Of a stretch of 64,000 nucleotides of DNA, positions 23,055 through 54,725 are shown one piece after another. The stretch's first letter is position 1, and each line of letters opens with the position of its first letter. Location of the stretch: the NCBI GenBank assembly GCA_019448215.1, contig CP080408.1, positions 3,038,001 to 3,102,000 on the forward strand, in the 5' to 3' direction. The notes below the pieces were generated by a model. That model was not told where the DNA came from, did no database searches, and saw nothing but the letters and a program-made list of their open reading frames with translations. A program made the position numbers and the translations under genes. This DNA comes from Thalassovita mediterranea. Its GTDB lineage: Bacteria > Pseudomonadota > Alphaproteobacteria > Caulobacterales > Hyphomonadaceae.

Positions 23055-23168
23055 GGCGGGTCCTTCCGTAGGTATGATCAGTGCGCCCAGAATGACCGCC
23101 CTCCTGTGCGCGCGCCGAGCCGCATTGCGGGCCAATACTTGCAACTCGCTGCAAAGGCGTGCAGCGTC

Positions 23169-30141: not shown

Positions 30142-31326
30142 TTACCGGTTCCGCTGGATCAGAGCGGCGGAACCAGGATCGTATTTCAGGGTACTGATAG
30201 TGCCGTCCTGAATAGCCTTCACGACAGCGTCGATGACATCCAGGGGCACGAGATACCATTCCCGTGGGCGCACAGGTTTGCCGAACCGGTCTAAAATTTC
30301 GATATCCAGCCGTGCTTCCGAGAAGAACCGGTGCAAGAGCGCTTCAAGCCTGACGCGATTAATGTTGAAAAGCTCATAGGTCGCGACGATTTCAACATCT
30401 GCGAGAAGATATGTTGCGTCGTTTGCCGCATTGGCGATGCGGGTCTCGACCTTGCCGCCGGTCACGCCCAGCTTGTGGATCAGATCGCGATTTTCCGCGA
30501 TCCGCGCATCGGATGAGTGACTGCGCAGAACATAGATCGTCCCGCTTTCCGTATCGTCCTCGCCGGCCTTGTCTGAAAAGAGCGGCCCTGCCGTTGGATC
30601 GGTGATGCGTCGTCCTGCATCATCCTTATTCAGGGCCCGCTGGAGAGACCGCATCAGGACATTGCTCTCGGTGGCGTTGCCATAGATCACCCGGAGGCGG
30701 GCATCTCGATCACCATATTCCTGCGTAAACTCATCACCTTTATCGGCGACATAGGCGATCTGGCCTCCAACGATAAAGAAGCGTCCTGGCTCGATTTCGG
30801 ATTTGAGTTCAAACGCGCGGGTCTGACGTATCCCATCATCGAGATCCTGCTTCACGCTCTCAAACAGGGGACGGAACTTGTCGAAATCCTTGCACGGTGT
30901 GCGATTGGCTATTTCTTCTGCAGCTTTGCGTTCAGCCGTGGGCCGGACGTGTTTGAGTGTGGTGACATCGTTGGTGGCGTCGGCGTCTACGCCGAGTTCT
31001 GCCAGCAAGGCTTCCGGGTCGGTCGCATTGGTCTGGGGGGCGGGTGCCGCGTCCCCCAACAGCTCTTGATGATCGATGGGCTCGAGCACAGACCGTGCCT
31101 CAGGAAGTGCCTTCAAGCGGTCGAGCCGAACCGCATACATCCGCTCGAATATGTCGCCATTTTCAGCGTGCTGTGGCGCGCGCCCATGTTCTTGAAAGAA
31201 GCGCTGGATGTCTTCAAAGCCCGCAATGATCCGCTCTTCCTGCTGCGAGCGGGCTGCGGCTTTTGGTTCATCGATTTCGACACCGAGTTCGGCGAGCAGT
31301 TCTTCAGCGGTCTTTTCAGGCATCAC
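30142..31326 (-). CDS. GIY-YIG nuclease-like (T5orf172/Mug113-type) protein of island A
   Basis: The 394-residue protein has repeated LLAELGVE/LLAELGVDAD motifs at about residues 9 and 108, and a C-terminal GIY-YIG-like domain of the T5orf172 type: GTIYVLRSHSSD (about residue 265), LIHKLGVTGGKVETRIA (about 285) and a helical RVRLEALLHRFFSEARL. The GIY position reads TIYVLRS and YIG reads HKLGVTG, as in that subfamily. It follows the helicase, overlapping its stop by 11 bases, and is last in the operon. It resembles the third gene of the B. subtilis yeeA-yeeB-yeeC operon (recalled, not searched). Whether it cuts DNA is unproven. Confidence 0.8.
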   Translation of the reverse strand: MMPEKTAEELLAELGVEIDEPKAAARSQQEERIIAGFEDIQRFFQEHGRAPQHAENGDIFERMYAVRLDRLKALPEARSVLEPIDHQELLGDAAPAPQTNATDPEALLAELGVDADATNDVTTLKHVRPTAERKAAEEIANRTPCKDFDKFRPLFESVKQDLDDGIRQTRAFELKSEIEPGRFFIVGGQIAYVADKGDEFTQEYGDRDARLRVIYGNATESNVLMRSLQRALNKDDAGRRITDPTAGPLFSDKAGEDDTESGTIYVLRSHSSDARIAENRDLIHKLGVTGGKVETRIANAANDATYLLADVEIVATYELFNINRVRLEALLHRFFSEARLDIEILDRFGKPVRPREWYLVPLDVIDAVVKAIQDGTISTLKYDPGSAALIQRNR

Positions 31327-33403: not shown

Positions 33404-33448
33404 GGCGATGTGCCCTTTTGAAGTACGGGCCGCCGCCAATAGGCTTGA

Positions 33449-33703
33449 CTATTTGCCCTTGCGGTTCGGTCGTTGTGTGAGTGTCGACGCCGCAGCAGAT
33501 TTCGCCGCCTTGCTGGCAGACTTTGACTGCAGCGTCTTTGCTGCTGTCGATGCCGCTTTGGCCGAGCTGACTTTCGACGTCTTTGATTGGGCCAGCGCTG
33601 AACCTGCAGCAGACTTTGCAGATCTTGATGCAGAGGAGCTGCGTAGGGTTTTGGACGCTGCGCTGGCAGCCGACTTCCCTGTTCTTTCAGTGTTGCGGGG
33701 CAT
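33449..33703 (-). CDS. Small Ala/Ser/Lys-rich tandem-repeat protein of island A
   Basis: The 84-residue, strongly basic protein consists of two copies of a unit of about 33 residues: ASKTLRSSSASRSAKSAAGS and AAKTLQSKSASKAAKSAAAS, each ending in a Leu-x-Gln-like step (SALAQ and STLTQ). The flanks are basic (MPRNTERTGK and RPNRKGK). It looks like histone H1-type or other low-complexity basic proteins; no enzyme domain is present. It lies between the membrane protein gene and the helicase on the same strand. I do not know its function; DNA binding is a reasonable guess. Confidence 0.7.
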   Translation of the reverse strand: MPRNTERTGKSAASAASKTLRSSSASRSAKSAAGSALAQSKTSKVSSAKAASTAAKTLQSKSASKAAKSAAASTLTQRPNRKGK

Positions 33704-33770
33704 GGATCGGGACTCCTAGCTATAGAATTCCGTTCTTGAAGCGAGTCGCGGCACAAAGCAAGAACATTGG

Positions 33771-34388
33771 TCATGCTGCGTCCTCCATCGACTTCCGGCG
33801 CGCCTCAAACTTCTGCAGAGTTTCTCGAAAGCAGGCCTCTGGATTCCAGTCAGGATTATTCGAAACACGACCAACGGACTCGATTTCGAACCGCTTTCGC
33901 AACGCTGACGCAATTTCCAGTGATTCAAGACCGATGCGCGCATAGCCTTGTTGCCTCGCCTCAAACACCTCATCAAAATCAGGTGGATGAGCATAATCGC
34001 TGGCCGCGTCGATATGGCGGTCCGTGCTTCGCGCCATGTTCGGGAGTGCCAGGATCCGGTGCATCAGCTTTTCGTCGAGACTGCGCCAAGCGATATCGTC
34101 GGGGTAGTCCGGCGGACCAGGTGTTGCGACTTGTGCCTGAAGATATTCCTGGCCGTCACTTGTGCGCCCAGCAGGCTGACCATAAGCGGTGCCGTCATCC
34201 TGAACGACATCGATGCACTTGTCTGCGTATTCGTCGAGCAGGCAGGCCAACCGAATCGCCGCGTACGACCCGTCGCGGCGACGTTGCCGAGAAGACGCCC
34301 ATGCGTCCTTCGAAACGGCGATAAGGCTACCAAGCAGGACACCTGCGAGGCCAATTCCGGCGACTATGAGATCTGTCAGTTCGATCAT
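33771..34388 (-). CDS. Single-pass membrane protein of island A, unknown function
   Basis: The 205-residue protein has one N-terminal helix, LIVAGIGLAGVLLGSLIAV (residues 7-25), and a soluble, mostly helical charged domain beginning KDAWASSRQRRRDGSYAAIR. No known motif is apparent. Its start overlaps the methyltransferase stop by 4 bases (ATGA), so it is translated with it. Single-pass membrane proteins with a cytosolic domain are found in several defence systems as effectors or regulators, but this one has no recognisable signature. It is not part of the yeeABC set that I remember. Confidence 0.75.
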   Translation of the reverse strand: MIELTDLIVAGIGLAGVLLGSLIAVSKDAWASSRQRRRDGSYAAIRLACLLDEYADKCIDVVQDDGTAYGQPAGRTSDGQEYLQAQVATPGPPDYPDDIAWRSLDEKLMHRILALPNMARSTDRHIDAASDYAHPPDFDEVFEARQQGYARIGLESLEIASALRKRFEIESVGRVSNNPDWNPEACFRETLQKFEARRKSMEDAA

Positions 34389-37165
34389 GCGGCGTCCTCC
34401 GCCGCTGTCATTTTCGTGTAGAGATCAAATAGCTTTTCGAGGCGTTCTGTGTCGTTCCTGAAGCGGCGGCCGATATAGATGCGCTCAAGCGTTTCGTCAT
34501 TGCGTTCATGGGCCTCGCGCACGAGGGGGAATTCCTCGTCCATGCGGTCGGGGTCATACATGTCGGCAATGGTCGCGGGGAAGTAATGCTCCCGCGCCAG
34601 CAGGATGTCCTCGGCGCAGCGGGTCAGATCAGCCTTGTTTTTCTCCGTCAGCGCCGGGACCGGAAAAGTGTTCCAGCCGAGGGTGTTGGAGTAGCGGAAA
34701 TCGGTTTTCATTTTGCCGCAGACCGTTGCGATCCAAACGAGATGAAGTTTGGAGACGACCAAGGCCAAATTCCAGATCGGCGCGTCGTAAAGACCAAAGG
34801 CTAGGTTTGTGAGCGTTGTTTTATTGTCTACAAGTCCGGCAGGCAGATACTCGCGGCGCTCAGACGACACTCCCGGTACGACGATAGTCTGCACGTCCCC
34901 AATCCGCATCAACTTCAGTTGGTGAGCGCGGGCCGCAAGCGCATTGGCTCCCTTGTCGCGGCTCGCAAGCCGTACGTCACGCACGGCTTCGATACGCGTC
35001 CGGAGCGAAGGTATTTTCAGAGCTTCCTCCAAGTCATTGTCATTGATCCATACGCAATGACGAAAACCATGACCTATGAAATCTCCGGAGCCAAAAATTC
35101 GACGAATGAATTTCGCCCTCTGTTGATCGCTCAGCGACAATGACGGTATTTCACTTCGATCAAGCAGTAGGTGGCCCCCATCTGTTGGCTTGTTGCCGAA
35201 TTCCATCTCAGCGATATCCGAAATTGGTTGCCGCGTCTTTGTCACGACCACTTCGGTGCCAAGCGTAAGGTACGGAGAAATTCCAGTACCCTGTCGCCTT
35301 GTTGTGCGACCGCTTCCATCATCTTCATAGATTGATTTCGAAGAGCCGCTGATCCTGGCTATTCCGACAATAGCGACCGTTACACCGGCATTATTGCTTG
35401 CGAGGTTAGTCCATTTGAAAGACGTATGAGCAAACCGTATTTCGCAACCAGAAGCGAAAAGCATTGGCCAAAGCAGAGGAACCGACTGACCTTGGCAAAT
35501 CGAGTTCGTAGTCACAAAGGCGGCAACTGTCGGCGTTTTCTCGATATAGGCCGCCGCTTTCAGAAACCAGCCTGATACATAGTCGAGAAAGCCCGGAGAA
35601 TTCATACGCCCGGCGACGACATTTTTGATCTCGTCCTTTTGCTGTTTGGATTGCCAAGTCGAGCCCAAGTAAGGCGGATTCCCGCAAATATACGTCTCCC
35701 AATCCCCGCCATCGCCCGGCTCCAGAGCCAGCCGTCCCGTCGGCCCCGCTAGGTCCTCCTCGACCGCTGACGCCTGTTCCGGCGGCGGGCAAACCTCCAG
35801 CCAATCGAGCCGCAACGCATTGCCGTGCTTGATCCGCCCCGTTTCCTTTAGCGGCAGGACGATCTCGCCTGCGCGTTCCTGGCCCATGGCATCGACGTCG
35901 CACTGATACTCGGCAATCAGCAGCGATAACCGTGCGATCTCGCAGGCAAAGTCCTTGATCTCGATCCCGTAGAAATTCTTCAGCGGGATGACGCTGCGCA
36001 GGTCTTCGCGATCCTTTGAGTCTGCGCTCAGAACCTTCAGGCGGCGCGAGAGGATTTCCGCCTCGATCGCGCGCATCTCCTTGTAGGCGATGACGAGGAA
36101 ATTGCCTGAGCCACAGGCCGGGTCGAAAACGCGGATGCGCCCCAGCCGCTTGCGCAGATTGAGGAGTTTGCGGGGATTGTCGCCAGCCTCCTCAAGCTGC
36201 GCGCGCAGATCATCCAGAAAGAGCGGGTTCAGCACTTTCAGGATGTTCGGCACGCTGGTGTAGTGCATGCCGAGCTCGCCGCGCTCTTCATCCTCGGCGA
36301 CGGCCTGGATCATCGACCCGAAAATGTCGGGGTTGATCGACTTCCAATCGAGGCTCCCGGCATGCAGAAGATAGCTGCGGGCAATCCTGGAGAACCGCGG
36401 CACTTCGTTCGATCCGGCAAACAGGCCGCCATTCACATAAGGAAACGCATCTGCCCAAGGCCTGAGGCCCGCCCCGGCACGTTCCCTGTTCGGGATGTCC
36501 ATGGCGCGAAACAGCTCAGAGATAATGTCGTGCGCGTTGTCGCGATCGCTCATCTGTTCGAGCGTGCGGGTGAACAGGTTCTCCCCGAGAAAGATGCCCG
36601 TATCTTCCGCGAAGAAGCAGAAGATCAGCCGCGCCATGAACTGATTGAGGTCGTGACGGCGTTCATCCGTAGCCCAGTCAGGATTTCCCTTCAGAAGTTC
36701 GACATAGAGGCGATTGAGACGCCCGGTCGCCTGGATATCGATCGGGTTATTCTTGATCGCTTTGACGGTCGTGATGCCTGCGAGCGGAAGAAAGAAACCG
36801 AAATGGTTCGGGAAGTCGCGGTAGTCGCAAACGCGGATGTCGCCTTCGACAAGGTCTTCGGCCTCAAGTGTCTGGCCATCGGTCGCCAGAATGAAGCGGA
36901 CTTTTCCTGTCGTCGTTTTCGGGCTGGCACGGAGTTCCGCGAGCTTCGCGTTCACCTTGCCCGGCTCGGCAACGGCGAGATGGATATTCTTGTACTGAAG
37001 GACGCCGCCCTCAACGTCGGAATTTTTCGCTGCGCTCGCCAGCAGGCGCTTTACCGTCGTCGGCTTGTTGTTGAAGGCTTCAAGGAAAGCACGCGGAAAC
37101 TCTTCTGCATCAAAGGGTGCAGAAGCAAGTTCAGATATGGCTTCTTCAATCTCAACGGCGTTCAT
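34385..37165 (-). CDS. DNA adenine methyltransferase, YeeA/MmeI type, of island A
   Basis: The 926-residue protein has the amino-methyltransferase motifs VFDPACGSGNFLVIAY (residues 347-360) and CGNPPYLGS (about 494-502), with a helical N-terminal domain (1-340) and a C-terminal target-recognition part (about 600-920). The arrangement follows MmeI/YeeA-type single-chain methyltransferases. No PD-(D/E)xK nuclease pair is obvious in the first 100 residues, so it may need the helicase and GIY-YIG gene for any restriction. It is the first gene of the island A operon, followed by the membrane protein, the repeat protein, the helicase and the GIY-YIG gene. Substrate: N6-adenine methylation inferred from NPPY. 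Confidence 0.9.
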   Translation of the reverse strand: MNAVEIEEAISELASAPFDAEEFPRAFLEAFNNKPTTVKRLLASAAKNSDVEGGVLQYKNIHLAVAEPGKVNAKLAELRASPKTTTGKVRFILATDGQTLEAEDLVEGDIRVCDYRDFPNHFGFFLPLAGITTVKAIKNNPIDIQATGRLNRLYVELLKGNPDWATDERRHDLNQFMARLIFCFFAEDTGIFLGENLFTRTLEQMSDRDNAHDIISELFRAMDIPNRERAGAGLRPWADAFPYVNGGLFAGSNEVPRFSRIARSYLLHAGSLDWKSINPDIFGSMIQAVAEDEERGELGMHYTSVPNILKVLNPLFLDDLRAQLEEAGDNPRKLLNLRKRLGRIRVFDPACGSGNFLVIAYKEMRAIEAEILSRRLKVLSADSKDREDLRSVIPLKNFYGIEIKDFACEIARLSLLIAEYQCDVDAMGQERAGEIVLPLKETGRIKHGNALRLDWLEVCPPPEQASAVEEDLAGPTGRLALEPGDGGDWETYICGNPPYLGSTWQSKQQKDEIKNVVAGRMNSPGFLDYVSGWFLKAAAYIEKTPTVAAFVTTNSICQGQSVPLLWPMLFASGCEIRFAHTSFKWTNLASNNAGVTVAIVGIARISGSSKSIYEDDGSGRTTRRQGTGISPYLTLGTEVVVTKTRQPISDIAEMEFGNKPTDGGHLLLDRSEIPSLSLSDQQRAKFIRRIFGSGDFIGHGFRHCVWINDNDLEEALKIPSLRTRIEAVRDVRLASRDKGANALAARAHQLKLMRIGDVQTIVVPGVSSERREYLPAGLVDNKTTLTNLAFGLYDAPIWNLALVVSKLHLVWIATVCGKMKTDFRYSNTLGWNTFPVPALTEKNKADLTRCAEDILLAREHYFPATIADMYDPDRMDEEFPLVREAHERNDETLERIYIGRRFRNDTERLEKLFDLYTKMTAAEDAA

Positions 37166-38638: not shown

Positions 38639-39634
38639 ATGTCACCTCCCTCGCACCACCTGGAGACCGAAACCCGCCGCACAGCGATGCTGCGCACGGC
38701 CTTCTGCCCGGTGGTGCGCGAGGCGCTGGAAGCGCCCGATACGATCGAGATCATGGCCAATCCGGACGGCTCTGTCTGGATCGAGACGGCCGGGATCGGG
38801 CTCATCGTGTCCGATCACACTCTTGCCCCTTCAGACCGCGAGCGCGTCATCCGGCTCGTGGCGTCCGGGGTGGGAGAAGCTGCCAGCCGCAACTCCCCAA
38901 TCGTCTCTGCCGAACTCCCCGGCAGTGGCGAGCGGTTTGAGGGGCTTCTTCCACCTGTCTCGACCGCGCCCTGCTTTTCGATCCGCAAGCCCGCGACGAC
39001 GCCGTTCGAGCTGGGCGACTATGTCGATCAAGGCGCGCTCGCCCCTGCACTGGCTGCCGCACTCCAGGACGCGATTGCGAACCATGCGAACATTCTGATC
39101 GCCGGCGGCACGTCATCCGGCAAGACGACCTTCACGAACGCGCTTCTTGCCGAACCTTCGCTCCATGACGACCGCATCCTCATTCTGGAGGATACGCGCG
39201 AACTTCGCTGCGCCGCGCCCAATGTGGTCCAGCTTCGCACGCATCGCGGCAGCACCAGCCTGCAGGACCTTGTCCGCTCGACTCTGCGCTTGCGCCCCGA
39301 CCGGATCATTGTCGGCGAGGTACGCGGTGCTGAAGCGCTCGATCTCCTGAAGGCCTGGAACACCGGCCATCCGGGCGGGATCACCACGCTGCATGCCAAC
39401 TCCGCCCACGGTGCACTTACCCGCCTTGAACAGTTGACGCTGGAGGCGACGCCCCGCGCGCCCTTCGACCTCATTGCAGAAGCGATCGACGTTGTCGTCT
39501 TCATGAGTCGCGCGGGCGGTCAGCGCCGCGTTGAAGAGGCGCTCCGCGTCACCGGCTTTGGCGAGGAGGGCTACCAGACCCAGCCGCTCGTCTCCCGATC
39601 TCTCTCACTCGTCCAACACGGAGAACTCCCATGA
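38639..39634 (+). CDS. trbB: Conjugal transfer ATPase TrbB (VirB11-like)
   Basis: The 331-residue hexameric ATPase powers pilus assembly and substrate switching at the inner-membrane face. It has Walker A IAGGTSSGKTTFTNALL (about residue 160), an Asp box LILEDTREL (about 190) and the His box GHPGGITTLHAN (about 247). Length fits VirB11 proteins. The ribosome site is weak (AAAGG about 10 bases upstream). It is the first trb gene; stop overlaps trbC by 4 bases. Confidence 0.93.
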   Translation: MSPPSHHLETETRRTAMLRTAFCPVVREALEAPDTIEIMANPDGSVWIETAGIGLIVSDHTLAPSDRERVIRLVASGVGEAASRNSPIVSAELPGSGERFEGLLPPVSTAPCFSIRKPATTPFELGDYVDQGALAPALAAALQDAIANHANILIAGGTSSGKTTFTNALLAEPSLHDDRILILEDTRELRCAAPNVVQLRTHRGSTSLQDLVRSTLRLRPDRIIVGEVRGAEALDLLKAWNTGHPGGITTLHANSAHGALTRLEQLTLEATPRAPFDLIAEAIDVVVFMSRAGGQRRVEEALRVTGFGEEGYQTQPLVSRSLSLVQHGELP

Positions 39635-39966: not shown

Positions 39967-40220
39967 TGGCAGAAGGCTACGAAATCCCGCTCCACCGCTC
40001 GCTGACCGAGCCGATCCTGATGGCAGGCGCGCCGCGCACGGCCGCCATCGCCATCGGGACGCTCGCCGCAGCGATCGGCCTTGGCCTCCAGCTCTGGATA
40101 CCGGGCCTCGTCATTTGGGCGGTCGGGCATTCGGCGGCAGTGTTCGTGGCGCGAAGCGATCCGGATTTCATGGCCGTTGCGAGCCGTTCAACACGCCACA
40201 AGGAGCATCTGACATGCTGA
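39966..40220 (+). CDS. trbD: TrbD (VirB3-like) inner-membrane protein
   Basis: The 84-residue protein begins MAEGYEIPLHRSLTEPILMA, the conserved VirB3/TrbD opening, followed by one membrane hairpin (AIAIGTLAAAIGLGLQLW and LVIWAVGHSAAVFVA). ATG 39966 overlaps the trbC stop by one base (TGATG). The 3' end overlaps the trbE start by 7 bases. Confidence 0.9.
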   Translation: MAEGYEIPLHRSLTEPILMAGAPRTAAIAIGTLAAAIGLGLQLWIPGLVIWAVGHSAAVFVARSDPDFMAVASRSTRHKEHLTC

Positions 40221-42685
40221 ACCTCAAGGAATACGCAGACACACCAAAACTGCTCGCAGACTATCTTCCCTGGGCCTGTCTCGTCGCGCCGGGCGTCGTC
40301 CTCAACAAGGACGGCTCGTTCCAGACCACGTTCCGCTATCGCGGCCCTGACCTTGAAAGCTCGACCGAGGAAGAACTCGTCTCCGTCATGGCGCGGGTCA
40401 ACAATGTGCTGCGCCGGTTCGGCTCGGGCTGGGCGCTGTTCTTCGAGGCGCAGCGTAATGAAGTGCATGACTATCCGGAAGCGGAGTTTCCCGACGCGCT
40501 CTCCTGGCTGATCGATCAGGAACGCGCGCTACAGGCTGAGGAATCCGGCGCCCGCTTTGAGAGCGCCTATTACCTCACCCTTTTGTGGTTGCCGCCGGCG
40601 GACGCCACGGGCCGCGCGGAGAAGGCGCTGATCCAGCGCGCCGAGACAGAAGACGCCGCGACCTGGCGCCACCGGCTGGAAACGTTCCAGCAACAAACGG
40701 ACAGAGTCTTTGACCTTCTCTCCACCTGTCTCGCCGAAATCGCAAAGCTCTCAGACGATGAGACGCTGATCTACCTGCACTCGACCATCTCGACGAAGCG
40801 CCATCCGGTTGTCACGCCCGAGCTCCCCGTCTTTCTTGACGCGGTGCTGGCCGACGAGCCCTTCGCGGGCGGCCTTGAGCCGATGATCGGCGAGGCGCAC
40901 CTCCGCACCCTGACCATTCTCGGATTCCCGGCCTCAACCCTGCCCGGCATACTCGATGAGCTGAACCGGCAGGGCTTTGCCTATCGCTGGGCGACACGGT
41001 TCATCGCCATGGACAAGGCCGAAGCCGAGAAGGTTCTGGGCAAGAAGCGCCGTCACTGGTTCGCCAAACGTAAATCCATCGGCGCGGTGCTGCGCGAGAC
41101 CATGTTCAATGAACAGGCCGCGCTCGTCGACAATGACGCTGACAACAAGGCCGGTGATGCCGATGCCGCCCTTCAGGAACTTGGCGCCGACCTTGTCTCC
41201 TACGGCTATGTCACCACGACCATCACGGTCGCAGATCCCGACCGGCGCACCGTCGACGAACATATCCGGATCGCCGAGCGCATCGTGACTGGCCGCGGCT
41301 TCACGGCGATCCGTGAGACGCTCAACGCCGTCGATGCCTGGCTCGGAAGCCTGCCCGGCCATCCATACGCCAATGTCCGCCAGCCGATCCTGCACACGCT
41401 GAACCTTGCCCATATGGTGCCGCTGTCTGCAGTCTGGGCGGGCGAAGAGACCAACCGGCACCTGCAAGCCCCAGCGCTGATCCAGGCGCAGACTGATGGC
41501 ACCACACCGTTCCGGCTGAACCTGCACATTGGCGATGTCGGCCATACGCTGGTGGTCGGCCCGACCGGCGCGGGCAAGTCAGTCCTGCTCTCGCTGCTCG
41601 CCCTGCAATGGAAGCGTTACGAGGGCGCTCAGGTCTTCATATTCGACAAGGGGCGCTCTGCCCGAGCCGCAACGCTCTGCATGGGCGGCAGGCATGTTGA
41701 TCTCGGCAGCTCCAAAGCTCCAAGCCTGCAACCCCTAAAGGACATCGACTCCGAACACGGCGCAAGCTTTGCCGCCGACTGGCTCGCGGGCCTGTGCGCC
41801 AATGAAGGCGTCGCCATGACGCCGGACCTGAAAGCCCGGCTCTGGGAAGCGATCCAGTCTCTCAGCTCAGCGCCTGAAACCGAGCGCACGCTGACCGGCC
41901 TGACGCTGATGCTGCAGGACGAAACCCTTAAATCCGCTCTGCACCCTTTCACGCTGGAAGGCCCGCATGGCCGGCTGCTCGATGCCGATCATGAAAGCCT
42001 AGCCCTCGCCGACACGGTCTGTTTCGAGATGGAAGCGCTGATGCATGCAAAGGGCGCTGTGGCGCCCGTGATCACCTATCTCTTCCACCGGCTCGAAGCG
42101 CGGTTCGACGGCAGACCGACGCTCCTCGTCCTCGATGAAGCCTGGCTCTTTCTAGATGATCCGATGTTTGCCGCGCGCCTCCGCGAATGGCTCAAGACCC
42201 TGCGAAAGAAAAACGTGTCCGTCGTGTTCGCGACCCAAAGCCTGGCTGACATCGCGAACTCGTCGATCGCACCAGCCTTGGTGGAATCCTGCCCGACGCG
42301 TATCTTCCTGCCAAATGAACGCGCGCAGGAACCGCTGGCCTGCGAAACCTATCAGCGCTTCGGCCTGAATGCGCGCCAGATCGAACTGATATCAAGAGCC
42401 ACGCCCAAGCGCGACTATTACTACCAGTCCCCGCTCGGTGCGCGCGTCTTCGATCTCGGTCTGGGACCGATCACACTTTCTGTCTGTGGCGCATCCTCAC
42501 CTGAAGATCAGATCCGCATGGACCGCATCTGGGCAGAGACCGAAGGGGACGGGTTCGCGGCCTGCTGGCTGATCGAGAAGGCGCTGCCCTGGGCGGCAGA
42601 GCTTCTCGATCGATGGCCGGGCCATGCGCCCCAACCTGGCGCAGACGCGCCTTTCCAGCCCTCAAAATTTCTCGCCGCCGAATAG
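40214..42685 (+). CDS. trbE: Conjugal transfer ATPase TrbE (VirB4-like)
   Basis: The 823-residue ATPase is the largest trb protein. Walker A is VVGPTGAGKSVLLSLLALQW (about residue 447), Walker B is LLVLDEAWLFLDDPMFAARL (about residue 637), and the C-terminal motif VVFATQSLADIANSSIAPAL follows. The N-terminal domain (about 1-420) is typical of VirB4 and contacts the inner-membrane platform. ATG 40214 has AAGGAG about 10 bases upstream and starts MLNLKEYADTPKLLADYLPW; the longer frame from 40115 runs back through trbD and is not real. Confidence 0.94.
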   Translation: MLNLKEYADTPKLLADYLPWACLVAPGVVLNKDGSFQTTFRYRGPDLESSTEEELVSVMARVNNVLRRFGSGWALFFEAQRNEVHDYPEAEFPDALSWLIDQERALQAEESGARFESAYYLTLLWLPPADATGRAEKALIQRAETEDAATWRHRLETFQQQTDRVFDLLSTCLAEIAKLSDDETLIYLHSTISTKRHPVVTPELPVFLDAVLADEPFAGGLEPMIGEAHLRTLTILGFPASTLPGILDELNRQGFAYRWATRFIAMDKAEAEKVLGKKRRHWFAKRKSIGAVLRETMFNEQAALVDNDADNKAGDADAALQELGADLVSYGYVTTTITVADPDRRTVDEHIRIAERIVTGRGFTAIRETLNAVDAWLGSLPGHPYANVRQPILHTLNLAHMVPLSAVWAGEETNRHLQAPALIQAQTDGTTPFRLNLHIGDVGHTLVVGPTGAGKSVLLSLLALQWKRYEGAQVFIFDKGRSARAATLCMGGRHVDLGSSKAPSLQPLKDIDSEHGASFAADWLAGLCANEGVAMTPDLKARLWEAIQSLSSAPETERTLTGLTLMLQDETLKSALHPFTLEGPHGRLLDADHESLALADTVCFEMEALMHAKGAVAPVITYLFHRLEARFDGRPTLLVLDEAWLFLDDPMFAARLREWLKTLRKKNVSVVFATQSLADIANSSIAPALVESCPTRIFLPNERAQEPLACETYQRFGLNARQIELISRATPKRDYYYQSPLGARVFDLGLGPITLSVCGASSPEDQIRMDRIWAETEGDGFAACWLIEKALPWAAELLDRWPGHAPQPGADAPFQPSKFLAAE

Positions 42686-48326: not shown

Positions 48327-48677
48327 ATGTTGCATCGCGTAAAGGAGGGCGGGCGCACAGGGCTTAAGGATTTCGCGCGGGACCTGAACCCGCCCCCAAA
48401 GGCCCCTGCCCCCGTCACGTCAACCGATCCTGAACGGATCACGCCTGCGGATATTTTCCGGCGACGAACCGTCAGGCGGCCGGAACTCCGCAAGCTCGTG
48501 CCGCTCTCCGACACGACAATCTACGAACTCGAACAGAAGGGCGAGTTCCCACAGCGCTTCTACCTCACGCCCCGTTGCGTCGTGTGGCCCCTCGCCGAAG
48601 TGCTGGAGTGGATCGACGCCCAACGGCGCAAGGGCCGAGATGGCTGCGGGCCTCATCCGGATTATCGGATGCGGTGA
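48327..48677 (+). CDS. AlpA-like DNA-binding protein
   Basis: The 116-residue protein has a disordered Pro/Lys-rich N-terminus and a C-terminal AlpA/MerR-type winged helix: LVPLSDTTIYELEQKGEFPQ, then RCVVWPLAEVLEWIDAQRRK. AlpA-like genes occur as regulators or excision factors in prophages and ICEs. It ends the plus-strand core, 10 bases from the convergent nuclease gene of island B. It is a candidate excisionase, along with the HTH protein at 25810. Confidence 0.8.
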   Translation: MLHRVKEGGRTGLKDFARDLNPPPKAPAPVTSTDPERITPADIFRRRTVRRPELRKLVPLSDTTIYELEQKGEFPQRFYLTPRCVVWPLAEVLEWIDAQRRKGRDGCGPHPDYRMR

Positions 48678-48686
48678 ATATGAGGG

Positions 48687-49394
48687 CTACGCTGCGGACG
48701 TTTTCCGGGTAGTCGTCGGATACCCGAACGGCAGAAAAAAGTGGGCAACACGTATATGTCCATGAGTAGGTGCTAAAGAGGGGTCTCTCTCATGCTCTGT
48801 GTCAAAGTCGGCGGCGTTGAACAAAGCGGATGGTTGGGTAATGGCTGAGCCATCTGCAGCTGGCCGGAGCTTGAGTTCGGCCACCATTTCTTCCTGACCT
48901 AGCATTTCCCGAATGGGGGGAACTACATCCGGCTCAGGATCAAGAAGAACACCGACCATGGCAGCAGCTGCCTGACGCCGACTATAAATTCCAGTGACAA
49001 AACGAGCTAAGCCATTCTCGCGCACATAGTGGTCTCGATGGCGCTTCTGTCTTCCCAAGCGCTTGAATTCGAAGACGAACTTTAAGCCCTGGGCGGAATC
49101 GTTCCAGCCATAGACAATATCAGTTCGGCGTTCTTCGATCATTTCGCCCGTCGCCGGATCTATCTCGCCAATGATATCCTCAGCCGCCCACATTCCGAGC
49201 AGGCCACGCTCCCGCGCAGTGTAATTTTCTATGTAGACCTTTAGTCGCTTCGTTAGCGCTGCTTCATTAGTTTTGGGGTTGAAGTCAGGCCGTGGCCGTT
49301 CAGCCAACTCGTTCCATGCTTGGCAAAGTGCTTCAACGGCTTCGGTCGCTGGCTGAATGGGGAATGCCGCAAACCAATCGTCAGCTACTGTCAC
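48687..49394 (-). CDS. PD-(D/E)xK-like nuclease of island B
   Basis: The 235-residue protein contains an apparent nuclease core: an Asp in RRTDIVYGWND (about residue 93), then VFEFKRLGRQ (Glu-x-Lys, about residue 107), with preceding AEDIIGEIDPATGEMIEERR. This D...ExK arrangement with beta-strand spacing is that of restriction-endonuclease-like folds, and REase-type DxDDxxxFK exceptions are not needed. No named family is recognised. Its start overlaps the methyltransferase stop by 4 bases (ATGA), making a coupled pair. It is probably the cutting or accessory subunit; substrate unknown. Confidence 0.72.
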   Translation of the reverse strand: MTVADDWFAAFPIQPATEAVEALCQAWNELAERPRPDFNPKTNEAALTKRLKVYIENYTARERGLLGMWAAEDIIGEIDPATGEMIEERRTDIVYGWNDSAQGLKFVFEFKRLGRQKRHRDHYVRENGLARFVTGIYSRRQAAAAMVGVLLDPEPDVVPPIREMLGQEEMVAELKLRPAADGSAITQPSALFNAADFDTEHERDPSLAPTHGHIRVAHFFLPFGYPTTTRKTSAA

Positions 49395-52300
49395 GCGGAC
49401 ACTCCCCGTTTTCCGGATGCAGCGCGGGCTTGTACTGTCCTTACAATTTGTTCCGCATCACGAAGTGCTTGCCGTATGGTCCAGTTGCGTTTGGTAAGCG
49501 GTCGCACGAGGTAAAGCGATTGATCGATCCAGATATGGGCATCTGGGACCAGCGTCAGGGAATCTCCTAGAGGAATGGCTCTCAGACCTGAAATGCGTAA
49601 TTGCTCGAGCGTTTGCAGGACAAGCGCATCGCTTACTTGCGTCTCCACGACGGGCGCCGAGGTAGGCTTGTCTTTGTATGAGATGCGAACGATTCCAGAT
49701 GGACCAGCTCGCCTAGGATCGCTGGTTACCACATCGACGTGGAAGCGTCCCTTGCCATGCGTTTTGGCTCGCCAATCCGTAAGTGATGTTGCAAGTGCAC
49801 GAGCATAAGTCTTGAAGTCTCTGCGCTGAGCAGTGTGCTGTGCTGGTGTGTCGAGGCTCTTGAAACCACGTGGTCGGATGGACGGCATGAAAACATCGAC
49901 TGTTTCACGGACAAGCTTCTGCTCCTCGGGGCCAAGGCCAAAATAGGAAAATACTGCCCGATCCAGCTCCGGCCTCAATTCTTCATAGCGCGCGCTTTGT
50001 TCAAGTTCGGGGAGTTCGGTGATTTCGGACACATGGCGAGAGACGCTCGACAGCGCTTCGGCTGCAACTGCCCCGTCGGGAGCATTCTCCGGCATAAAGA
50101 ACGGAAACGTCTCGACGTCCTTGAGGTGGACACCATTGCGTTCGCACAGCATCTTCCAGCCACGCATCATCAGGAAGTAGCGCGCAAGACTTGAGCGTAG
50201 ATACACGGCAACGAAGCTAAGAAGTTCAGCGTCCTCCTTCGGTCCTGAGATCACGCCAATGCTGTGGGTAAAAGATGCGGGTCCATCATAGTAGACCGCT
50301 CGGACATTCAACTGCTTCCTAGAAAACCCATCCGGGAACAAAACGCGCGGGCCATCGAATACACTCAGCACCGCCTCGTTTAGACCGACAACAGTATCCT
50401 GGCCCTTTGGCCACGATGTAAGTAAGTCTGAGTGCAAGACAGGCGAACCAGCGCTTAGCGCAGCTATCGGTATGAACGGCTTGTCGCGGAGCGGTCCGGC
50501 GTTGACCGGCTCGCGACTCCTGTCGTTCAGATGGATCCCCTTTCGGTATATCCAGCGACGATATTCGTGGGGTCCGCGCCAGAAATCAGAAAATGTGCCG
50601 TGTGCGGACAGACGCGCCCAAATTGAAAGGTCGTTTGCATCGCCCCACATCATAGTCACGAGAAGTTGGGGGTCTTCCGCCACTGAGCGCGTTTGAAGAT
50701 GATGTTTGTCGGCGGATTGCATTGTCAGCCGGCCAAGAGCAAGACTCATATCTGCTTTAGGCACGCAGTATTCGAAAGTCTCATCGAAGGGGATTCTGCT
50801 CGGAAGCCGTTCTGGCCGTACAATGCCAAGGAAGACATGACAGGTATTCTCTGCAGTAGGGAAAAGAAGCCCCTGGAGATCACCAAAATTGATCAATCGT
50901 GACGGCTGATACTGTTCTAGCAGATGCGAAACGAACCCCGCACTGGACGGTCCGAGAAACTGCCCGATTGGCAAGATGAGACAGATTTGTCCCCCCGCCT
51001 GCAGAAAGTCTATCGCGCGCAACGCATACGCGCCGGCTATCTGGCGGCGCACAAATGGAGCTTCGGCACGTTCTGCCCAAGCGTCTGCGCTCGTCTTAGA
51101 GGAGCCTTCAGGTTCGGCCCATGGTGGATTCGAGATAATGAGCGAGAAGCGCTTACCGCTGAAAGCATGATCATCGCGGAAAAAGTCTGCTGCGTGCTCA
51201 CCATAGGTTAGGTTTGAGCCGTTCAATGACGGCAGTTTTGTCCCCTCTCGTTCCTGCGCTTCCATGATGTCGGCAGGATTTAGGCCTTCCAGGAGCGACA
51301 AATAGAGACTGAACGCTGTGACACGGCAGGCCATAAAATTGATGTCGCCGCCAAAAATATGACCTCGGAGCAGGTCTGCGCGTTCGCGGAAACTCAGTTG
51401 GCGCCCTTCCCGTGCTTCTGACAGCGCGATCAGCCGACGATAGGCCGTGGTCAGGAGGATGCCGGAGCCGCACGCACCGTCAAAAATCGTTTCAGAGAGT
51501 GGGTCGGATGAATTCGTGAACGCCTGGTCGACCGCGAGCATAGCAAGGTGACGTGGCGTGTAATACGCGCCGTCCTTCGCCTGCTGTTCATCCGATAAGA
51601 AAGACTCGTAGAGACCAGAAAGTAACTCGACCGGAATATAACTAAAATCGTAGTTCCAAAAATCACCTTGGCCGGTTCGCATATCAGTCCGCTGTAGAAA
51701 GCGATTGATCAGGTTGAAGCCGTTATCCGTGAGTTTGGTCCAGGGATCGTGGCGATCATCCCCCATGAAGTCGCCATTGAAATCCAATCGAAGTGCGTCA
51801 ATCAGTCTTCTGAGTCCAGCCCGATCTTTCTCGTCGATCAGATGATGGAGTTGAGAGACTTGCCGGCGATCGCGGTAAGTGGCGCCGACAATCTCGCGAT
51901 GTTCCAAATAGGAGAGGAACAGAATCTGGCCCATAAGCAGCTCGGCCAGATGACGGCGATCGTGATCCTTCGATGCTCCCGAGAGTCCCTGATCGGCAAG
52001 CTGTGAGACGACAGCGGAGAGGTTCGCGAGCAACTTTCGGTCGACTCGCGCCTTTACATCGAACCAGTTGGGAACGCGCCGGGAGACATTGGCAGAGGCT
52101 ATGTCGAGCGCAGAGAAAGGACCGTCCGGTCGGGCGTCATCAAGGATAAGCTGTTGGCCTGCGTTGCGCAGCTTTCGGGCAGGCACAGCTAGGGCCGTGT
52201 CGCCTTTAATTTCAATAACTATAGTAGCAAGATTTTGATTCCAGACACGTTTGCGGATTTCGTCGAGCGCTTGAGACGAAAGAGGATCTCCATCATCTCC

Positions 52301-52498
52301 TACGAACACGACTGTAGGCACCCCCTCCACGTCAAAGACGGCGTGAGCACGTATTGGGCCTTCCGGTCTCAGGAGGGTCTTGAGTTCAAGTGCATATGGA
52401 TGAGTTTCGGGAACGTCATCGCCGCGACGATGCAAGACGGCAGGTTCAGCATTGTAGCCGAGCCTATCTAGCCAATTCTGCATCGATTCCGCGCTCAT
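49391..52498 (-). CDS. N6-adenine DNA methyltransferase of island B
   Basis: The 1035-residue protein has motif I FDGACGSGILLTTAYRRL (residues about 339-356) and motif IV IISNPPWAEP (about 455-464), so it is an N6-adenine methyltransferase with the less usual NPPW. Residues 1-135 carry an extra domain (HAVFDVEGVPTVVFVGDDGD, then WNQNLATIVIEIKGDTALAV) that resembles N-terminal modules of other large methylase proteins; a nuclease function for it is not clear. The region 600-1000 is probably target recognition. No HsdS, helicase or PglZ gene is nearby. It is coupled to the nuclease gene at 48687 and preceded by the regulator gene at 52602. Confidence 0.88.
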   Translation of the reverse strand: MSAESMQNWLDRLGYNAEPAVLHRRGDDVPETHPYALELKTLLRPEGPIRAHAVFDVEGVPTVVFVGDDGDPLSSQALDEIRKRVWNQNLATIVIEIKGDTALAVPARKLRNAGQQLILDDARPDGPFSALDIASANVSRRVPNWFDVKARVDRKLLANLSAVVSQLADQGLSGASKDHDRRHLAELLMGQILFLSYLEHREIVGATYRDRRQVSQLHHLIDEKDRAGLRRLIDALRLDFNGDFMGDDRHDPWTKLTDNGFNLINRFLQRTDMRTGQGDFWNYDFSYIPVELLSGLYESFLSDEQQAKDGAYYTPRHLAMLAVDQAFTNSSDPLSETIFDGACGSGILLTTAYRRLIALSEAREGRQLSFRERADLLRGHIFGGDINFMACRVTAFSLYLSLLEGLNPADIMEAQEREGTKLPSLNGSNLTYGEHAADFFRDDHAFSGKRFSLIISNPPWAEPEGSSKTSADAWAERAEAPFVRRQIAGAYALRAIDFLQAGGQICLILPIGQFLGPSSAGFVSHLLEQYQPSRLINFGDLQGLLFPTAENTCHVFLGIVRPERLPSRIPFDETFEYCVPKADMSLALGRLTMQSADKHHLQTRSVAEDPQLLVTMMWGDANDLSIWARLSAHGTFSDFWRGPHEYRRWIYRKGIHLNDRSREPVNAGPLRDKPFIPIAALSAGSPVLHSDLLTSWPKGQDTVVGLNEAVLSVFDGPRVLFPDGFSRKQLNVRAVYYDGPASFTHSIGVISGPKEDAELLSFVAVYLRSSLARYFLMMRGWKMLCERNGVHLKDVETFPFFMPENAPDGAVAAEALSSVSRHVSEITELPELEQSARYEELRPELDRAVFSYFGLGPEEQKLVRETVDVFMPSIRPRGFKSLDTPAQHTAQRRDFKTYARALATSLTDWRAKTHGKGRFHVDVVTSDPRRAGPSGIVRISYKDKPTSAPVVETQVSDALVLQTLEQLRISGLRAIPLGDSLTLVPDAHIWIDQSLYLVRPLTKRNWTIRQALRDAEQIVRTVQARAASGKRGVSA

Positions 52499-52601
52499 AG
52501 CTATTGCTCATCCGAAGTCTCGCCAAGCGAGAACATAACCGGAACATATAAGTCTGACAAAGGAGTTTGCCAAATCGACTTTGGCAGATTTCCGTCAACC
52601 C

Positions 52602-53099
52602 TCATGCTGAACGCCTCCGGCTAAATTCAGCTGCTTTGCCTGGTGCTTTCGAGCAGTCAGCGCGTTGCAGGTTTGGCAGAGAAAAGAGGTCGAGTTGTCC
52701 GCGGCCTGCGGTGACATCAGGGAGCGCAAATCCAGTTCGCAGCACGCGCAAGTGTGGATCAAGGCGGATCAGTAGAGCATCATCTTGTGCTATGGGGGCT
52801 TCCTCATCGACGATCATCCACTGGTCCGGGGTTACAGCCACCCGATGTCCCCACAAAGTAATGAAGGATCGCTTTCGCAAATCCGACCGCAAATTGATAA
52901 ACGATGTTCTATGCGCTTGCAGTTCAAGATGAAATCTCTCACGCAGAAGCACCGCAATTCTCAACACTAGAATCGTCTGCCAAGTGAATTTGGCAGGTGA
53001 CCCCTTCTTCTGTGGTCGGACATCGGCTGGTATCAGCGCACGCCTACTGGTCCACTCGCGAAGTTTATCCGTCGAAAGGCCGGTAAGTTCGGACGCCAC
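52602..53099 (-). CDS. MerR-like helix-turn-helix regulator of island B
   Basis: The 165-residue protein (from GTG 53099) begins VASELTGLSTDKLREWTSRR, a MerR-type helix-turn-helix, followed by FTWQTILVLRIAVLLRERFH and a C-terminal region of unknown fold. The codons upstream of GTG read LRYVPTQ, matching the usual start of this domain type, and a CTG at 53120-53118 has AGGGAG about 7 bases upstream, so the true start may be CTG giving 172 residues. Two imperfect palindromes lie just upstream (53140-53183). It is 103 bases from the methyltransferase start and probably controls that operon, as C proteins do in restriction-modification systems. Confidence 0.72.
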   Translation of the reverse strand: MASELTGLSTDKLREWTSRRALIPADVRPQKKGSPAKFTWQTILVLRIAVLLRERFHLELQAHRTSFINLRSDLRKRSFITLWGHRVAVTPDQWMIVDEEAPIAQDDALLIRLDPHLRVLRTGFALPDVTAGRGQLDLFSLPNLQRADCSKAPGKAAEFSRRRSA

Positions 53100-53139
53100 T
53101 TGTGTCGGAACGTATCGCAGTGGGCTACTCCCTCGGAAT

Positions 53140-53183
53140 GGGTATCGTACCCAACTAAAACTGGAGAACGGGTATCATGCCCG
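53140..53183. promoter_or_regulatory. Tandem palindromes upstream of the island B regulator
   Basis: GGGTA-TCG-TACCC (53140-53152) and CGGGTATCATGCCCG (53169-53183, imperfect) have centres 30 bases apart, close to three helical turns. They lie 20-63 bases upstream of the possible start sites of the MerR-like gene. They are candidate autoregulatory operators; the spacing suggests two protein molecules on one face of the DNA. Confidence 0.6.
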
Positions 53184-53278
53184 TTCTTTAGGTCAAGTTC
53201 GATTGTGGACCGACTCCAAAGGTAAAGAAATACGCCGCGAAATCTGACCGTTGGCCCAAATCGGACAAATCACCTCCT

Positions 53279-54544
53279 CTATTTGAACCCCACCCTCGGA
53301 TCAGCCGCGTAGACCGCCATGCTCTCCGGGATGATGTTCGGCTTGCGGCTTTCGCCGGCGGCCCACGCGTCGATCATGTCGGCCCATTCCTGCATCATGT
53401 GGCGACGCTGGTCGGCATATTCAGCCTTGTTGTAGACGCCGCGCGATGAACGCCGGTCCTCATGGGCGAGGCTCTTCTCGATCCAGTCGCGATTGAAGCC
53501 GAGCTCATTGAGCAGCGTCGATCCGGTACGCCGCAGGTCATGAACCGTGAAGGGCTCAAGCGGCAGCTCCATCTCGCTCGCCAGCTTGTGCGCGCTGTCG
53601 GTGATCCGGTTGAACGTCGCATTCGAGATCGGGCGGAACGTGTCATAGCGCGACGGGAAGACGTATTTTGATCCGCCTGCGCAGGTTTTCAGCGCCACCA
53701 GAATGTCGAGCGCCTGGTTCGAGAGATAGACATTGTGATCGAGGCCCGTCTTCATTCGCTTCTTTGGGATGGTCCAGACCGCATCCTGGAAACTGACCTC
53801 GTCCCAGGTCGCATGGGCAACCTCGGTCTTGCGCTTCATCGTCAGCAGGATGAATTTCACGCCGAGCTTCAGCGTCGGATTGGCGGTGATCTCTTCAAGG
53901 ACGCGATAAAGCACCCGGATCTCCAGCGGCGTCAGGGAGCGGTCGCGGGGCCGGACCCGCGCAATCGAACGGGGATCGACCTCCTCTGCGGGATTTTCGA
54001 CGCGGATGCCGTGCAAGTTGGCGAAGGCGTAGATCAGCTTGATAAACTCACGGGCATGAAGCGCCGTTGAAGGCGCGCCCCGCTTCTTGATCTTGTCGCA
54101 GAGCTGACGGACATCCTCGCTGGTCACTTCACGCAGCGTATAGTTCCCCAGCGACGGGATCAGATCACGGTCGACAATGTGACGACGCATGTCGCGGGTC
54201 GAATCTGACATTTCGCTCTCAACGAGCCAGCGCTGAGCAAGCTCTCCGAAGGTCCCTTCTGCTTTGGCTTTTCCTTTTGCCCGCTTTTTCTCTTTGGCCG
54301 GCGAGATGCCTTCGTCCACCTGCTTCTTCGCATCAATTAGTCGCTCGCGAGCAACTGCCAATGAGATGCCATACCGCCCGTAACGACCGATGGTGAGAGT
54401 CTCCCGACGGCCATTCACACGGTAGTCGTACCGAAAAATCTTGCTGCCTGCAGGCGTCACTGCGACGTACAGGCCGTCGCGATCAGCCACCTTGTAGATT
54501 TTTTCCTTCGGTTTCAATGACTTGATAGCAATATCTGTCAGCAC
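53279..54544 (-). CDS. int: Tyrosine-type integrase with Arm DNA-binding domain
   Basis: The 421-residue recombinase (from GTG 54544) starts VLTDIAIKSLKPKEKIYKVA with the DUF4102-type arm-binding domain, then a core-binding domain (about 95-190) and the catalytic domain with Arg in LLTMKRKTEVAHATWDEV (about 243), HDLRR near residue 347 (HxxR), and the Tyr in SSRGVYNKAEYADQ at about 380. The start was chosen because GGAGG lies 6 bases upstream; the extension to 54601 covers repeat elements. It sits next to the 3' end of guaA on the same strand and should direct integration there. Confidence 0.92.
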   Translation of the reverse strand: MLTDIAIKSLKPKEKIYKVADRDGLYVAVTPAGSKIFRYDYRVNGRRETLTIGRYGRYGISLAVARERLIDAKKQVDEGISPAKEKKRAKGKAKAEGTFGELAQRWLVESEMSDSTRDMRRHIVDRDLIPSLGNYTLREVTSEDVRQLCDKIKKRGAPSTALHAREFIKLIYAFANLHGIRVENPAEEVDPRSIARVRPRDRSLTPLEIRVLYRVLEEITANPTLKLGVKFILLTMKRKTEVAHATWDEVSFQDAVWTIPKKRMKTGLDHNVYLSNQALDILVALKTCAGGSKYVFPSRYDTFRPISNATFNRITDSAHKLASEMELPLEPFTVHDLRRTGSTLLNELGFNRDWIEKSLAHEDRRSSRGVYNKAEYADQRRHMMQEWADMIDAWAAGESRKPNIIPESMAVYAADPRVGFK

Positions 54545-54567
54545 AGAATACCTCCATTTCAACCAAA

Positions 54568-54725
54568 ATACCGTCAGGCCAAAATGGCCATTTTTTGACA
54601 ACGAAACGCTTGTTTTTCAATGCGTTACGCCGAAACAATACCGTCAGGCCGCTAAAAAGGGCTGACGGTATTTTGACTTTAGGCAGGAAGTGGCAATTTG
54701 TATACCGTCAGGCGATACCGTCAGC
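54568..54725. repeat. Five copies of ATACCGTCAG between int and guaA
   Basis: The 10-base ATACCGTCAG occurs at 54568, 54638, 54702 and 54715 on the plus strand and as CTGACGGTAT at 54662-54671 on the minus strand; four copies continue with G(G)C. Such iterons near a tyrosine integrase gene are candidate arm-type integrase or excisionase binding sites. They overlap the int promoter region, so they could also regulate int. Confidence 0.75.

What the first reader, a model, noticed from the sequence alone, without database searches (positions are those of the whole stretch)
48687..53183. Compact three-gene modification/nuclease unit with its own MerR-like regulator
A 1035-residue NPPW methyltransferase is coupled by ATGA to a PD-(D/E)xK-like nuclease, and a MerR-like HTH gene with two upstream palindromes precedes it. 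It lacks HsdS, helicase, PglZ and DrmB, so it fits no BREX, DISARM or type I scheme. The regulator resembles a controller protein, which would delay nuclease expression after transfer.
Basis: partly seen in the sequence, partly recalled or inferred. Interest (0 to 1): 0.75.

Follow-up and report, generated by a model that had tools for sequence, protein, structure and literature searches.

The report
Mobile three-gene DNA modification-and-cutting operon
A mobile element carries three linked genes for a DNA-marking enzyme, a DNA-cutting enzyme and a small switch protein, and the tail of that switch looks like a hook for the cell's DNA-copying ring, which could tie this defence to replication.

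Summary
The three-gene unit is real and recurs as a cassette. A methyltransferase (MTase) scan, capped at the best 80 hits, plus a viral-contig scan gave 83 loci, some near-identical. The small nuclease follows the MTase in 81 (the other two stop at a contig edge); a MerR-like gene precedes it in 63. The nuclease has an invariant E-D-ExK core and models as a restriction-enzyme fold. The MTase is a full-length member of a PADLOC "type IIG" family, but its N-terminal region keeps no conserved D/E/K, so cutting probably comes from the separate gene. The regulator models like the repressor CvkR, with palindromes upstream in 32 of 34 loci of its main clade. A looser form is kept in 53 of 55 family members, and similar tails occur in an apparently unrelated HTH family beside several kinds of DNA MTase. 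My reading: a mobile restriction-modification operon whose autoregulator is coupled to replication. The operon is well supported; the clamp step is inferred from sequence and untested.

The parts
53165..53187 (.). distal palindrome AGAACGGGCATGATACCCGTTCT (13-bp core 53170-53182), presumed operator 1
   Evidence: at least one site with at most 2 mismatches to GGGTATGATACCC upstream of the regulator in 32 of 34 non-redundant clade-1 loci
53140..53152 (.). proximal palindrome GGGTACGATACCC, presumed operator 2, start 30 bp from that of operator 1
   Evidence: two sites (at most 4 mismatches) 29-31 bp apart in 24 of 34 clade-1 loci
52602..53099 (-). MerR-like regulator (165 aa from GTG; true start probably CTG at 53120)
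   Evidence: AlphaFold2 model; CvkR match
52683..52697 (-). QLDLF (residues 135-139), clamp-binding-type motif in the predicted-disordered C-terminal tail
   Evidence: consensus seen in passages of PMC9690074 and PMC13254535
49391..52498 (-). N6-adenine DNA methyltransferase, 1035 aa, IIG-like, N-terminal region without conserved nuclease residues
51119..51130 (-). NPPW catalytic motif IV (residues 457-460)
   Evidence: 100% conserved in 58 non-redundant MTases
49391..49394 (-). GTGA overlap of MTase stop and nuclease start
   Evidence: 4-base overlap in 66 of 79 loci
48687..49394 (-). PD-(D/E)xK nuclease, 235 aa (E44, D92, E109-x-K111)

Best explanation
This is a horizontally mobile restriction-modification operon. 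The 1035-aa enzyme recognises a DNA site and methylates adenine there. The coupled PD-(D/E)xK protein cuts DNA lacking that mark, acting as a separate subunit. A CvkR-like MerR-type protein represses the operon by binding two palindromes about three helix turns apart. Its flexible tail carries a beta-sliding-clamp-binding peptide, so the regulator can contact the replisome. The likeliest use is to adjust MTase and nuclease expression to ongoing DNA replication, when new unmethylated sites appear. Shown by computation: cassette conservation, active-site residues, predicted folds, operator-like sites, tail motif. Inferred: methylation and cutting, repression, clamp binding, replication coupling.
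For: Nuclease behind the MTase in 81 of 83 loci and MerR-like gene before it in 63 of 83. Nuclease E44/D92/E109/K111 invariant in 63 of 63; model pLDDT 92 aligned best to OkrAI, BamHI, BglII, McrBC and Can2, Z 6.2-7.3. MTase motifs DxACGSG and NPPW 97-100% conserved, no D/E/K at 90% or more in residues 1-145 of 58 MTases. Regulator model vs CvkR: Z 10.1 over 122 residues, the next MerR proteins (9.2 and lower) covering mostly the DNA-binding part. Operator-like sites in 32 of 34 clade-1 loci. Tail: Q135 and F139 30 of 30, L138 29 of 30 in clade 1, with neighbouring tail positions more variable; tail pLDDT about 50; 53 of 55 MerR-like proteins match the loose motif (27 the published strict form) against 3.4 (1.5) in shuffled tails. 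An apparently unrelated XRE-like HTH family takes the same operon position in L091, L095-L098 and L107; 11 of 21 members carry the motif (6 strict), also beside D12/Dam-type and MT-A70 MTases.
Against: No experiment. QLDLF-type peptides are not specific by themselves: the host genome holds 10 codon matches to Q[LF]D[LF]F (1 in the reversed control); of the nine others two also lie within 12 residues of a C-terminus and the rest are internal or in short, doubtful frames (genes not identified by search). Several of the MTases contain an internal Q-x-L-L-F of their own. Twelve of 49 non-redundant MerR-like proteins have only the longer form, 8 of them QG[HY]L[QP]F; in 11 of the 12 the second residue is outside the published consensus. 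L148 has no motif and L089 fails the pattern. Twenty of 83 loci lack a recognised MerR-like gene (two start at the contig edge, one has the XRE-like gene), so the regulator is not always present. XRE-like proteins without the motif also occur beside MTases (L099, L126; L096 partial). Shuffles do not correct for common descent. Nuclease structure scores (Z 7.3) are middling by the tool's own note, and three of the first sixteen rows are the unrelated protein Rep15.
Confidence: 0.55

Rival explanations
1. Plain autoregulated restriction-modification operon. The MerR-like protein is an ordinary repressor and its conserved tail has another role, such as docking on RNA polymerase, on itself or on the MTase; the clamp is not involved.
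For: CvkR, the nearest solved structure, is a MerR-type transcriptional repressor. Operator-like sites are conserved. Peptides like QLDLF occur elsewhere in the genome. The motif form differs between the two MerR clades.
Against: Motif kept in 53 of 55 family members inside a predicted-disordered tail whose other positions vary more. The same kind of motif sits on an apparently unrelated HTH family beside MTases of other families, which argues against a private contact with one MTase.
Confidence: 0.35
2. Fork tether: the HTH protein is an adaptor that brings the MTase (and nuclease) to the clamp, so that new DNA is methylated right behind the fork, as DNMT1 does with PCNA.
For: Tail motif as above; the DNMT1-PCNA precedent is described in PMC9690074 (passage). 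A bacterial MTase, DnmA, is enriched near the replisome, there attributed to substrate binding (PMC9973331, passages).
Against: The adaptor would have to bind MTases of several families (MT-A70, D12/Dam, N6_Mtase); no contact surface was tested. Seventeen of the 81 loci with upstream sequence have neither a MerR-like nor the XRE-like gene.
Confidence: 0.2
3. Not restriction: an epigenetic or addiction module of the mobile element in which the nuclease acts only when the MTase is lost.
For: Carried on plasmids and in an integrative element. DnmA with YeeB and YeeC, another MTase cluster, is reported not to restrict (PMC9973331, passage).
Against: Does not exclude restriction; type II systems commonly do both (recalled).
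Confidence: 0.2
4. A genuine type IIG enzyme: the 1035-aa protein itself cuts, and the small protein is an accessory.
For: PADLOC labels the family REase_MTase_IIG.
Against: No D/E/K at 90% or more in residues 1-145 of 58 MTases, whereas the small protein has the full E-D-ExK set in 63 of 63.
Confidence: 0.05

Closest known systems
Type IIG restriction enzyme-methyltransferase (PADLOC PDLC03623)
   Same: MTase matches the model over residues 4-1028, E 1.3e-257
   Different: no conserved nuclease residues in its N-terminal region; they are present in a separate, overlapping gene
C-protein-controlled type II restriction-modification systems
   Same: small HTH protein, two operator-like sites, separate MTase and nuclease (C-protein features from starts of abstracts and recalled)
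   Different: MerR-type rather than XRE-type fold (the XRE type of C proteins is recalled); MTase and nuclease downstream in one apparent operon; clamp-type tail
CvkR (Alr3614), MerR-type repressor of type V-K CRISPR-associated transposons (PMC9938897)
   Same: closest solved fold over residues 1-126, Z 10.1; small regulator of a mobile element
   Different: different operon; CvkR's C-terminal helix packs on its own domains (PMC9938897, passage), here the tail is predicted disordered
DnmA-YeeB-YeeC of Bacillus subtilis
   Same: DNA MTase plus partner genes; DnmA is enriched near the replisome (PMC9973331, passages)
   Different: replisome enrichment attributed to substrate binding; a cluster that looks of that kind lies elsewhere in this window (30142-37165)
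T4 gp33/gp55 with gp45, transcription activation by a sliding clamp (PMC7892883)
   Same: regulatory proteins with a clamp-binding motif attached to the body by a linker (passages)
   Different: phage sigma-type factor and coactivator, phage clamp
BREX PglX
   Same: distant N6 MTase similarity
   Different: NCBIfam BREX scores 13.6-26.9 bits against cut-offs of 400-900

Membership tests
PD-(D/E)xK nuclease superfamily | E/D-D-(D/E)xK active-site residues | tested here: met
   E44, D92, E109, K111 invariant in 63 of 63
PD-(D/E)xK nuclease superfamily | fold | tested here: met
   model pLDDT 92.4; best alignments OkrAI, BamHI, BglII, McrBC, Can2, Z 6.2-7.3; Foldseek vs viral models top hit a PD-(D/E)XK nuclease, E 9e-4. 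Scores are middling; Foldseek vs solved structures alone gave best E 0.064, BamHI
PD-(D/E)xK nuclease superfamily | DNA cleavage | not testable with these tools
   needs biochemistry
Type IIG restriction-modification | family match of the MTase | tested here: met
   PDLC03623, E 1.3e-257
Type IIG restriction-modification | nuclease active site in the same chain | tested here: not met
   no D/E/K at 90% or more in residues 1-145 among 58 MTases; the fold of that region was not modelled
Type IIG restriction-modification | cleavage beside an asymmetric site | not testable with these tools
   site unknown
C-protein-controlled type II RM | HTH gene with tandem operators upstream | tested here: met
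   (sites by sequence only)
C-protein-controlled type II RM | XRE-type controller fold | tested here: not met
   MerR/CvkR-type fold
C-protein-controlled type II RM | regulator sets nuclease apart from MTase expression | tested here: inconclusive
   gene order and 4-base overlap argue against it; no transcript data
BREX | PglX family score | tested here: not met
   NCBIfam 26.9 bits vs cut-off 400 for BREX-2, lower for BREX-1, 5 and 6
Beta-clamp-binding proteins | QL[S/D]LF, or Q-phi-x-[LM]-[FL] / Q-phi-x-[LM]-x-[FL], in a flexible segment | tested here: met
   window QLDLF, tail pLDDT about 50; consensus from passages. Strict form in only 27 of 55 family members
Beta-clamp-binding proteins | binding to DnaN | not testable with these tools
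   no complex prediction or assay available
MerR family | N-terminal MerR wHTH | tested here: met
   Pfam MerR_1 in 36 of 48 members at E up to 1, best 3.8e-6; the window protein itself is below the curated cut-off; fold

The most novel reading that the evidence does not exclude
DNA-methyltransferase operons of mobile elements carry small HTH regulators, from at least two apparently unrelated families (MerR/CvkR-like and XRE-like), that have independently gained beta-sliding-clamp-binding tails. This would be a replication-sensing control of modification and restriction.
Probability: 0.42. Interest if true: 0.82.

Novelty: new variant of a known kind. Interest (0 to 1): 0.6.

Why it matters
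The cassette is a restriction-modification variant whose nuclease is not recognised by library models: no hit for the window protein in Pfam, PADLOC, NCBIfam or PHROGs at E up to 1, and only single, weak hits among 63 relatives in Pfam and PADLOC, the two libraries scanned with relatives. How mobile restriction systems time their expression in a new or dividing host is an old question. A clamp-binding regulator would be a direct physical link between modification and replication. It is testable with one peptide-binding assay.

Tried and rejected
Family libraries for the nuclease gave nothing useful: in Pfam 13 families each matched 1 of 63 members weakly (among them PDDEXK_9, E 0.16), in PADLOC AbiEi matched 1 of 63 at 5e-4 and PDC-M72B 1 of 63 at 0.05, and the profile's best matches among solved chains were dioxygenases, E 0.009, taken as chance. 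BREX, MADS and type I labels were rejected on scores. A single-sequence nuclease search of 289 genomes of the class found only the own genome. I tested whether the tail motif alone is diagnostic and found it is not. I looked for a second attachment-site copy of the guaA end and found none in the window (15-mers) or in the genome with up to 3 mismatches (one 21-mer). Viral-contig scans for the XRE-like family added few members. Dropped before counts: L151 and L152 from the MerR-like set, because only their HTH matches; L009, L040, L046 and L092 from nuclease alignment A4, and L031 (short frame) from regulator alignment A5; duplicates L100, L108 and L110 from the XRE-like count. In print I looked for a clamp-binding restriction or methylase regulator and for MerR with type IIG and saw none among the titles and abstract starts listed; several listings were capped and most subscription papers are not held. 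The BREX survey PMC12839542 has no 'MerR' in its main text (term search and passages only). The Fisher test of motif versus MTase neighbour (9 of 12 vs 2 of 9, p 0.03) ignores relatedness, and some neighbours were judged by annotation or by eye (L109, L111, L123, L124, L126, L153, L156), so it is only indicative.
Full report
WHAT IS THERE. On the minus strand of the window lie a MerR-like gene (52602-53099), an N6 DNA methyltransferase (MTase) gene (49391-52498) and a 235-aa gene (48687-49394) whose GTG start overlaps the MTase stop by four bases, GTGA. The unit sits between an AlpA-like gene and conjugation genes on one side and a tyrosine integrase (53279-54601) next to guaA on the other (guaA read from the sequence), so it is probably cargo near the right end of an integrative conjugative element.

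IT IS A CASSETTE. A scan of the species-genome collection with an alignment of six MTases found 109 relatives, of which the best 80 were kept (79 loci); a scan of viral contigs gave 4 loci. Both scans start from the MTase, so they say nothing about nucleases that live without it, and some of the 83 loci are near-identical to each other. Profile searches of these 83 loci found the nuclease family in 81; the two misses, L057 and L061, end inside the MTase at a contig edge. The MerR-like family was found in 63. Of the 20 without it, two start at a contig edge (L034, L040) and one has another HTH gene (L091). In 79 loci with an intact MTase and a nuclease the nuclease start overlaps the MTase stop by four bases in 66. 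MTase plus nuclease hold together down to 27% MTase identity, all three genes down to 28%, on plasmids of Paracoccus, Bradyrhizobium, Ciceribacter and Mameliella and in several orders of Pseudomonadota, with single metagenome-bin contigs labelled Acidobacteriia, Chloroflexi and Rhodothermaceae (record titles). Three loci (records named Marivita, Pseudooceanicola and a Rhodobacteraceae bin) are 98% identical to the window over the MTase (L012-L014), which suggests recent transfer. In an even sample of 398 genomes of the phylum, 5 carry the nuclease family, the own genome included.

THE NUCLEASE. No library recognised the window protein. In 63 aligned members E44, D92, E109 and K111 are invariant, the E-D-ExK signature of PD-(D/E)xK enzymes, together with an invariant C-terminal F197, H201, R203 and H218 that I cannot assign. 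The AlphaFold2 model (55 sequences, mean pLDDT 92) aligns best to OkrAI, BamHI, BglII, McrBC, BstYI and Can2 (Z 6.2-7.3 over 126-152 residues). These scores are middling, but most of the top rows are PD-(D/E)xK enzymes (a family label partly recalled); exceptions such as Rep15 appear at Z 6.0-6.2. In a library of viral models the best Foldseek hit is a PD-(D/E)XK nuclease (E 9e-4). Against solved structures Foldseek alone gave nothing below 0.06, the best row being BamHI.

THE METHYLTRANSFERASE. Pfam N6_Mtase and Eco57I match, and PADLOC's type IIG model PDLC03623 matches residues 4-1028 at E 1.3e-257. So the enzyme belongs to a catalogued family. In 58 non-redundant members the motifs DxACGSG and NPPW are 97-100% conserved, but no D, E or K in residues 1-145 reaches 90%. 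A type IIG enzyme carries its nuclease in the same chain; here the conserved catalytic set is in the neighbouring gene. It is therefore best called IIG-like with a nuclease in trans. The MTase was not modelled.

THE REGULATOR AND ITS OPERATORS. The AlphaFold2 model (42 sequences) is confident over residues 1-125 and disordered from about 134. Its closest solved structure is CvkR, a MerR-type repressor of CRISPR-associated transposons: Foldseek E 2.6e-3, VIA-align Z 10.1 over 122 residues, against 9.2 and lower for MerR proteins that cover mostly the DNA-binding part; a sequence profile finds it too, E 5.6e-4. I saw passages of the CvkR paper, PMC9938897. Upstream of the gene, 32 of 34 non-redundant clade-1 loci have at least one site within 2 mismatches of GGGTATGATACCC, 23 have two or more at up to 3 mismatches, and in 24 two sites (up to 4 mismatches) start 29-31 bp apart; density is 42 sites per 5,440 bp against 6 per 406,302 bp elsewhere in the loci. 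The two misses are L038 and L044. In clade 2 the commonest palindrome is different, GGGGTNNACCCC-like. This is strong evidence for autoregulation; that it is repression is inferred from CvkR.

THE TAIL. In the window the tail contains QLDLF (52683-52697). In 30 clade-1 proteins Q and F are invariant and L occurs in 29, while neighbouring tail positions vary more; a C-terminal RRSA is also kept. Published clamp-binding consensuses are QL(S/D)LF and Q-phi-x-[L/M][F/L] or Q-phi-x-[L/M]x[F/L] (passages of PMC9690074, and PMC13254535). Of 55 MerR-like proteins (49 non-redundant, the window included, plus six from other genomes) 27 match the strict form and 53 a looser one allowing other second residues; shuffled tails give 1.5 and 3.4. 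The shuffle does not correct for common descent. The misses are L148 and, by a phenylalanine in place of leucine, L089. Clade 2 mostly has QG[HY]L[QP]F, outside the strict form.

A SECOND HTH FAMILY. In L091 the MTase and nuclease are preceded by an XRE-like HTH protein that the MerR-like profile does not match and that ends in QKNLFPSPSAQ. Relatives of it precede the same kind of cassette in L095-L098 and L107, an MT-A70 MTase in L106 and L155, a D12/Dam-type MTase in L127, a 533-aa Eco57I/N6-type MTase in L154, and a cytosine MTase with Vsr in L099. Of 21 members 11 carry the motif (QATLEL, QADLDL, QASLDL, QINLQL, QADLF and others; 6 in strict form): 9 of 12 beside a MTase and 2 of 9 not (Fisher p 0.03, uncorrected for relatedness, some neighbours judged by eye). 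L099 and L126 are beside a MTase without it, L096 has a partial form, and L153 and L156 have it without a MTase neighbour. Since the neighbouring MTases are of several families, a shared host partner such as the clamp explains the tails better than a private contact with one MTase.

LIMITS. QLDLF-type peptides also occur by chance: ten codon matches to Q[LF]D[LF]F in the host genome against one in the reversed control; of the nine outside this regulator two lie within 12 residues of a C-terminus and the others are internal or in short, doubtful frames. Several MTases of the family contain an internal Q-x-L-L-F. No binding, methylation, cutting or transcription was measured. T4 late transcription shows that a sliding clamp can act through clamp-binding motifs of regulators (PMC7892883, passages), and DNMT1 with PCNA shows clamp-guided methylation (PMC9690074, passage); both are analogies.

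VERDICT. A real, recurrent, mobile restriction-modification-like operon, a new variant of a known kind, with a regulator whose tail makes a sharp, cheap and novel prediction.

Noticed in passing
window 30142-37165 (-): MmeI-type MTase (34385-37165), DEAD-type helicase (31316-33439) and T5orf172-type gene (30142-31326) in a row. They look like a DnmA-YeeB-YeeC-type cluster; the equation with YeeB and YeeC is recalled, not tested.
   Followed up: partly
window 21096-54601: Integrative conjugative element: coupling protein 21096-23144, relaxase-like 23169-25094, secretion ATPases 38639-39634 and 40115-42685, AlpA-like 48327-48677, integrase 53279-54601 beside guaA. No second copy of the guaA end was found.
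   Followed up: partly
L150 1624-8308: A divergent, broken copy of the cassette also lies next to a guaA-like gene, suggesting a shared integration hot spot (guaA read by eye).
   Followed up: no
L106, L127, L154, L155: XRE-like HTH genes with clamp-type tails directly precede MT-A70, D12/Dam-type and Eco57I/N6-type DNA methyltransferases.
   Followed up: yes
L147 3299-6273; L149 3420-6397: MerR-like proteins with QLSLF and QETLRF tails precede N6 MTases only distantly related to the window's; no nuclease of this family was recognised in the stretches fetched.
   Followed up: partly
window 52605-52616 and relatives: The regulator's last residues RRSA are conserved in clade 1 after a variable linker; role unknown.
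   Followed up: no
window 48687-49394, residues 197-218: Invariant F197, H201, R203 and H218 (T199 at 90% or more) at the C-terminus of the nuclease family, outside the usual PD-(D/E)xK motifs; role unknown.
   Followed up: no
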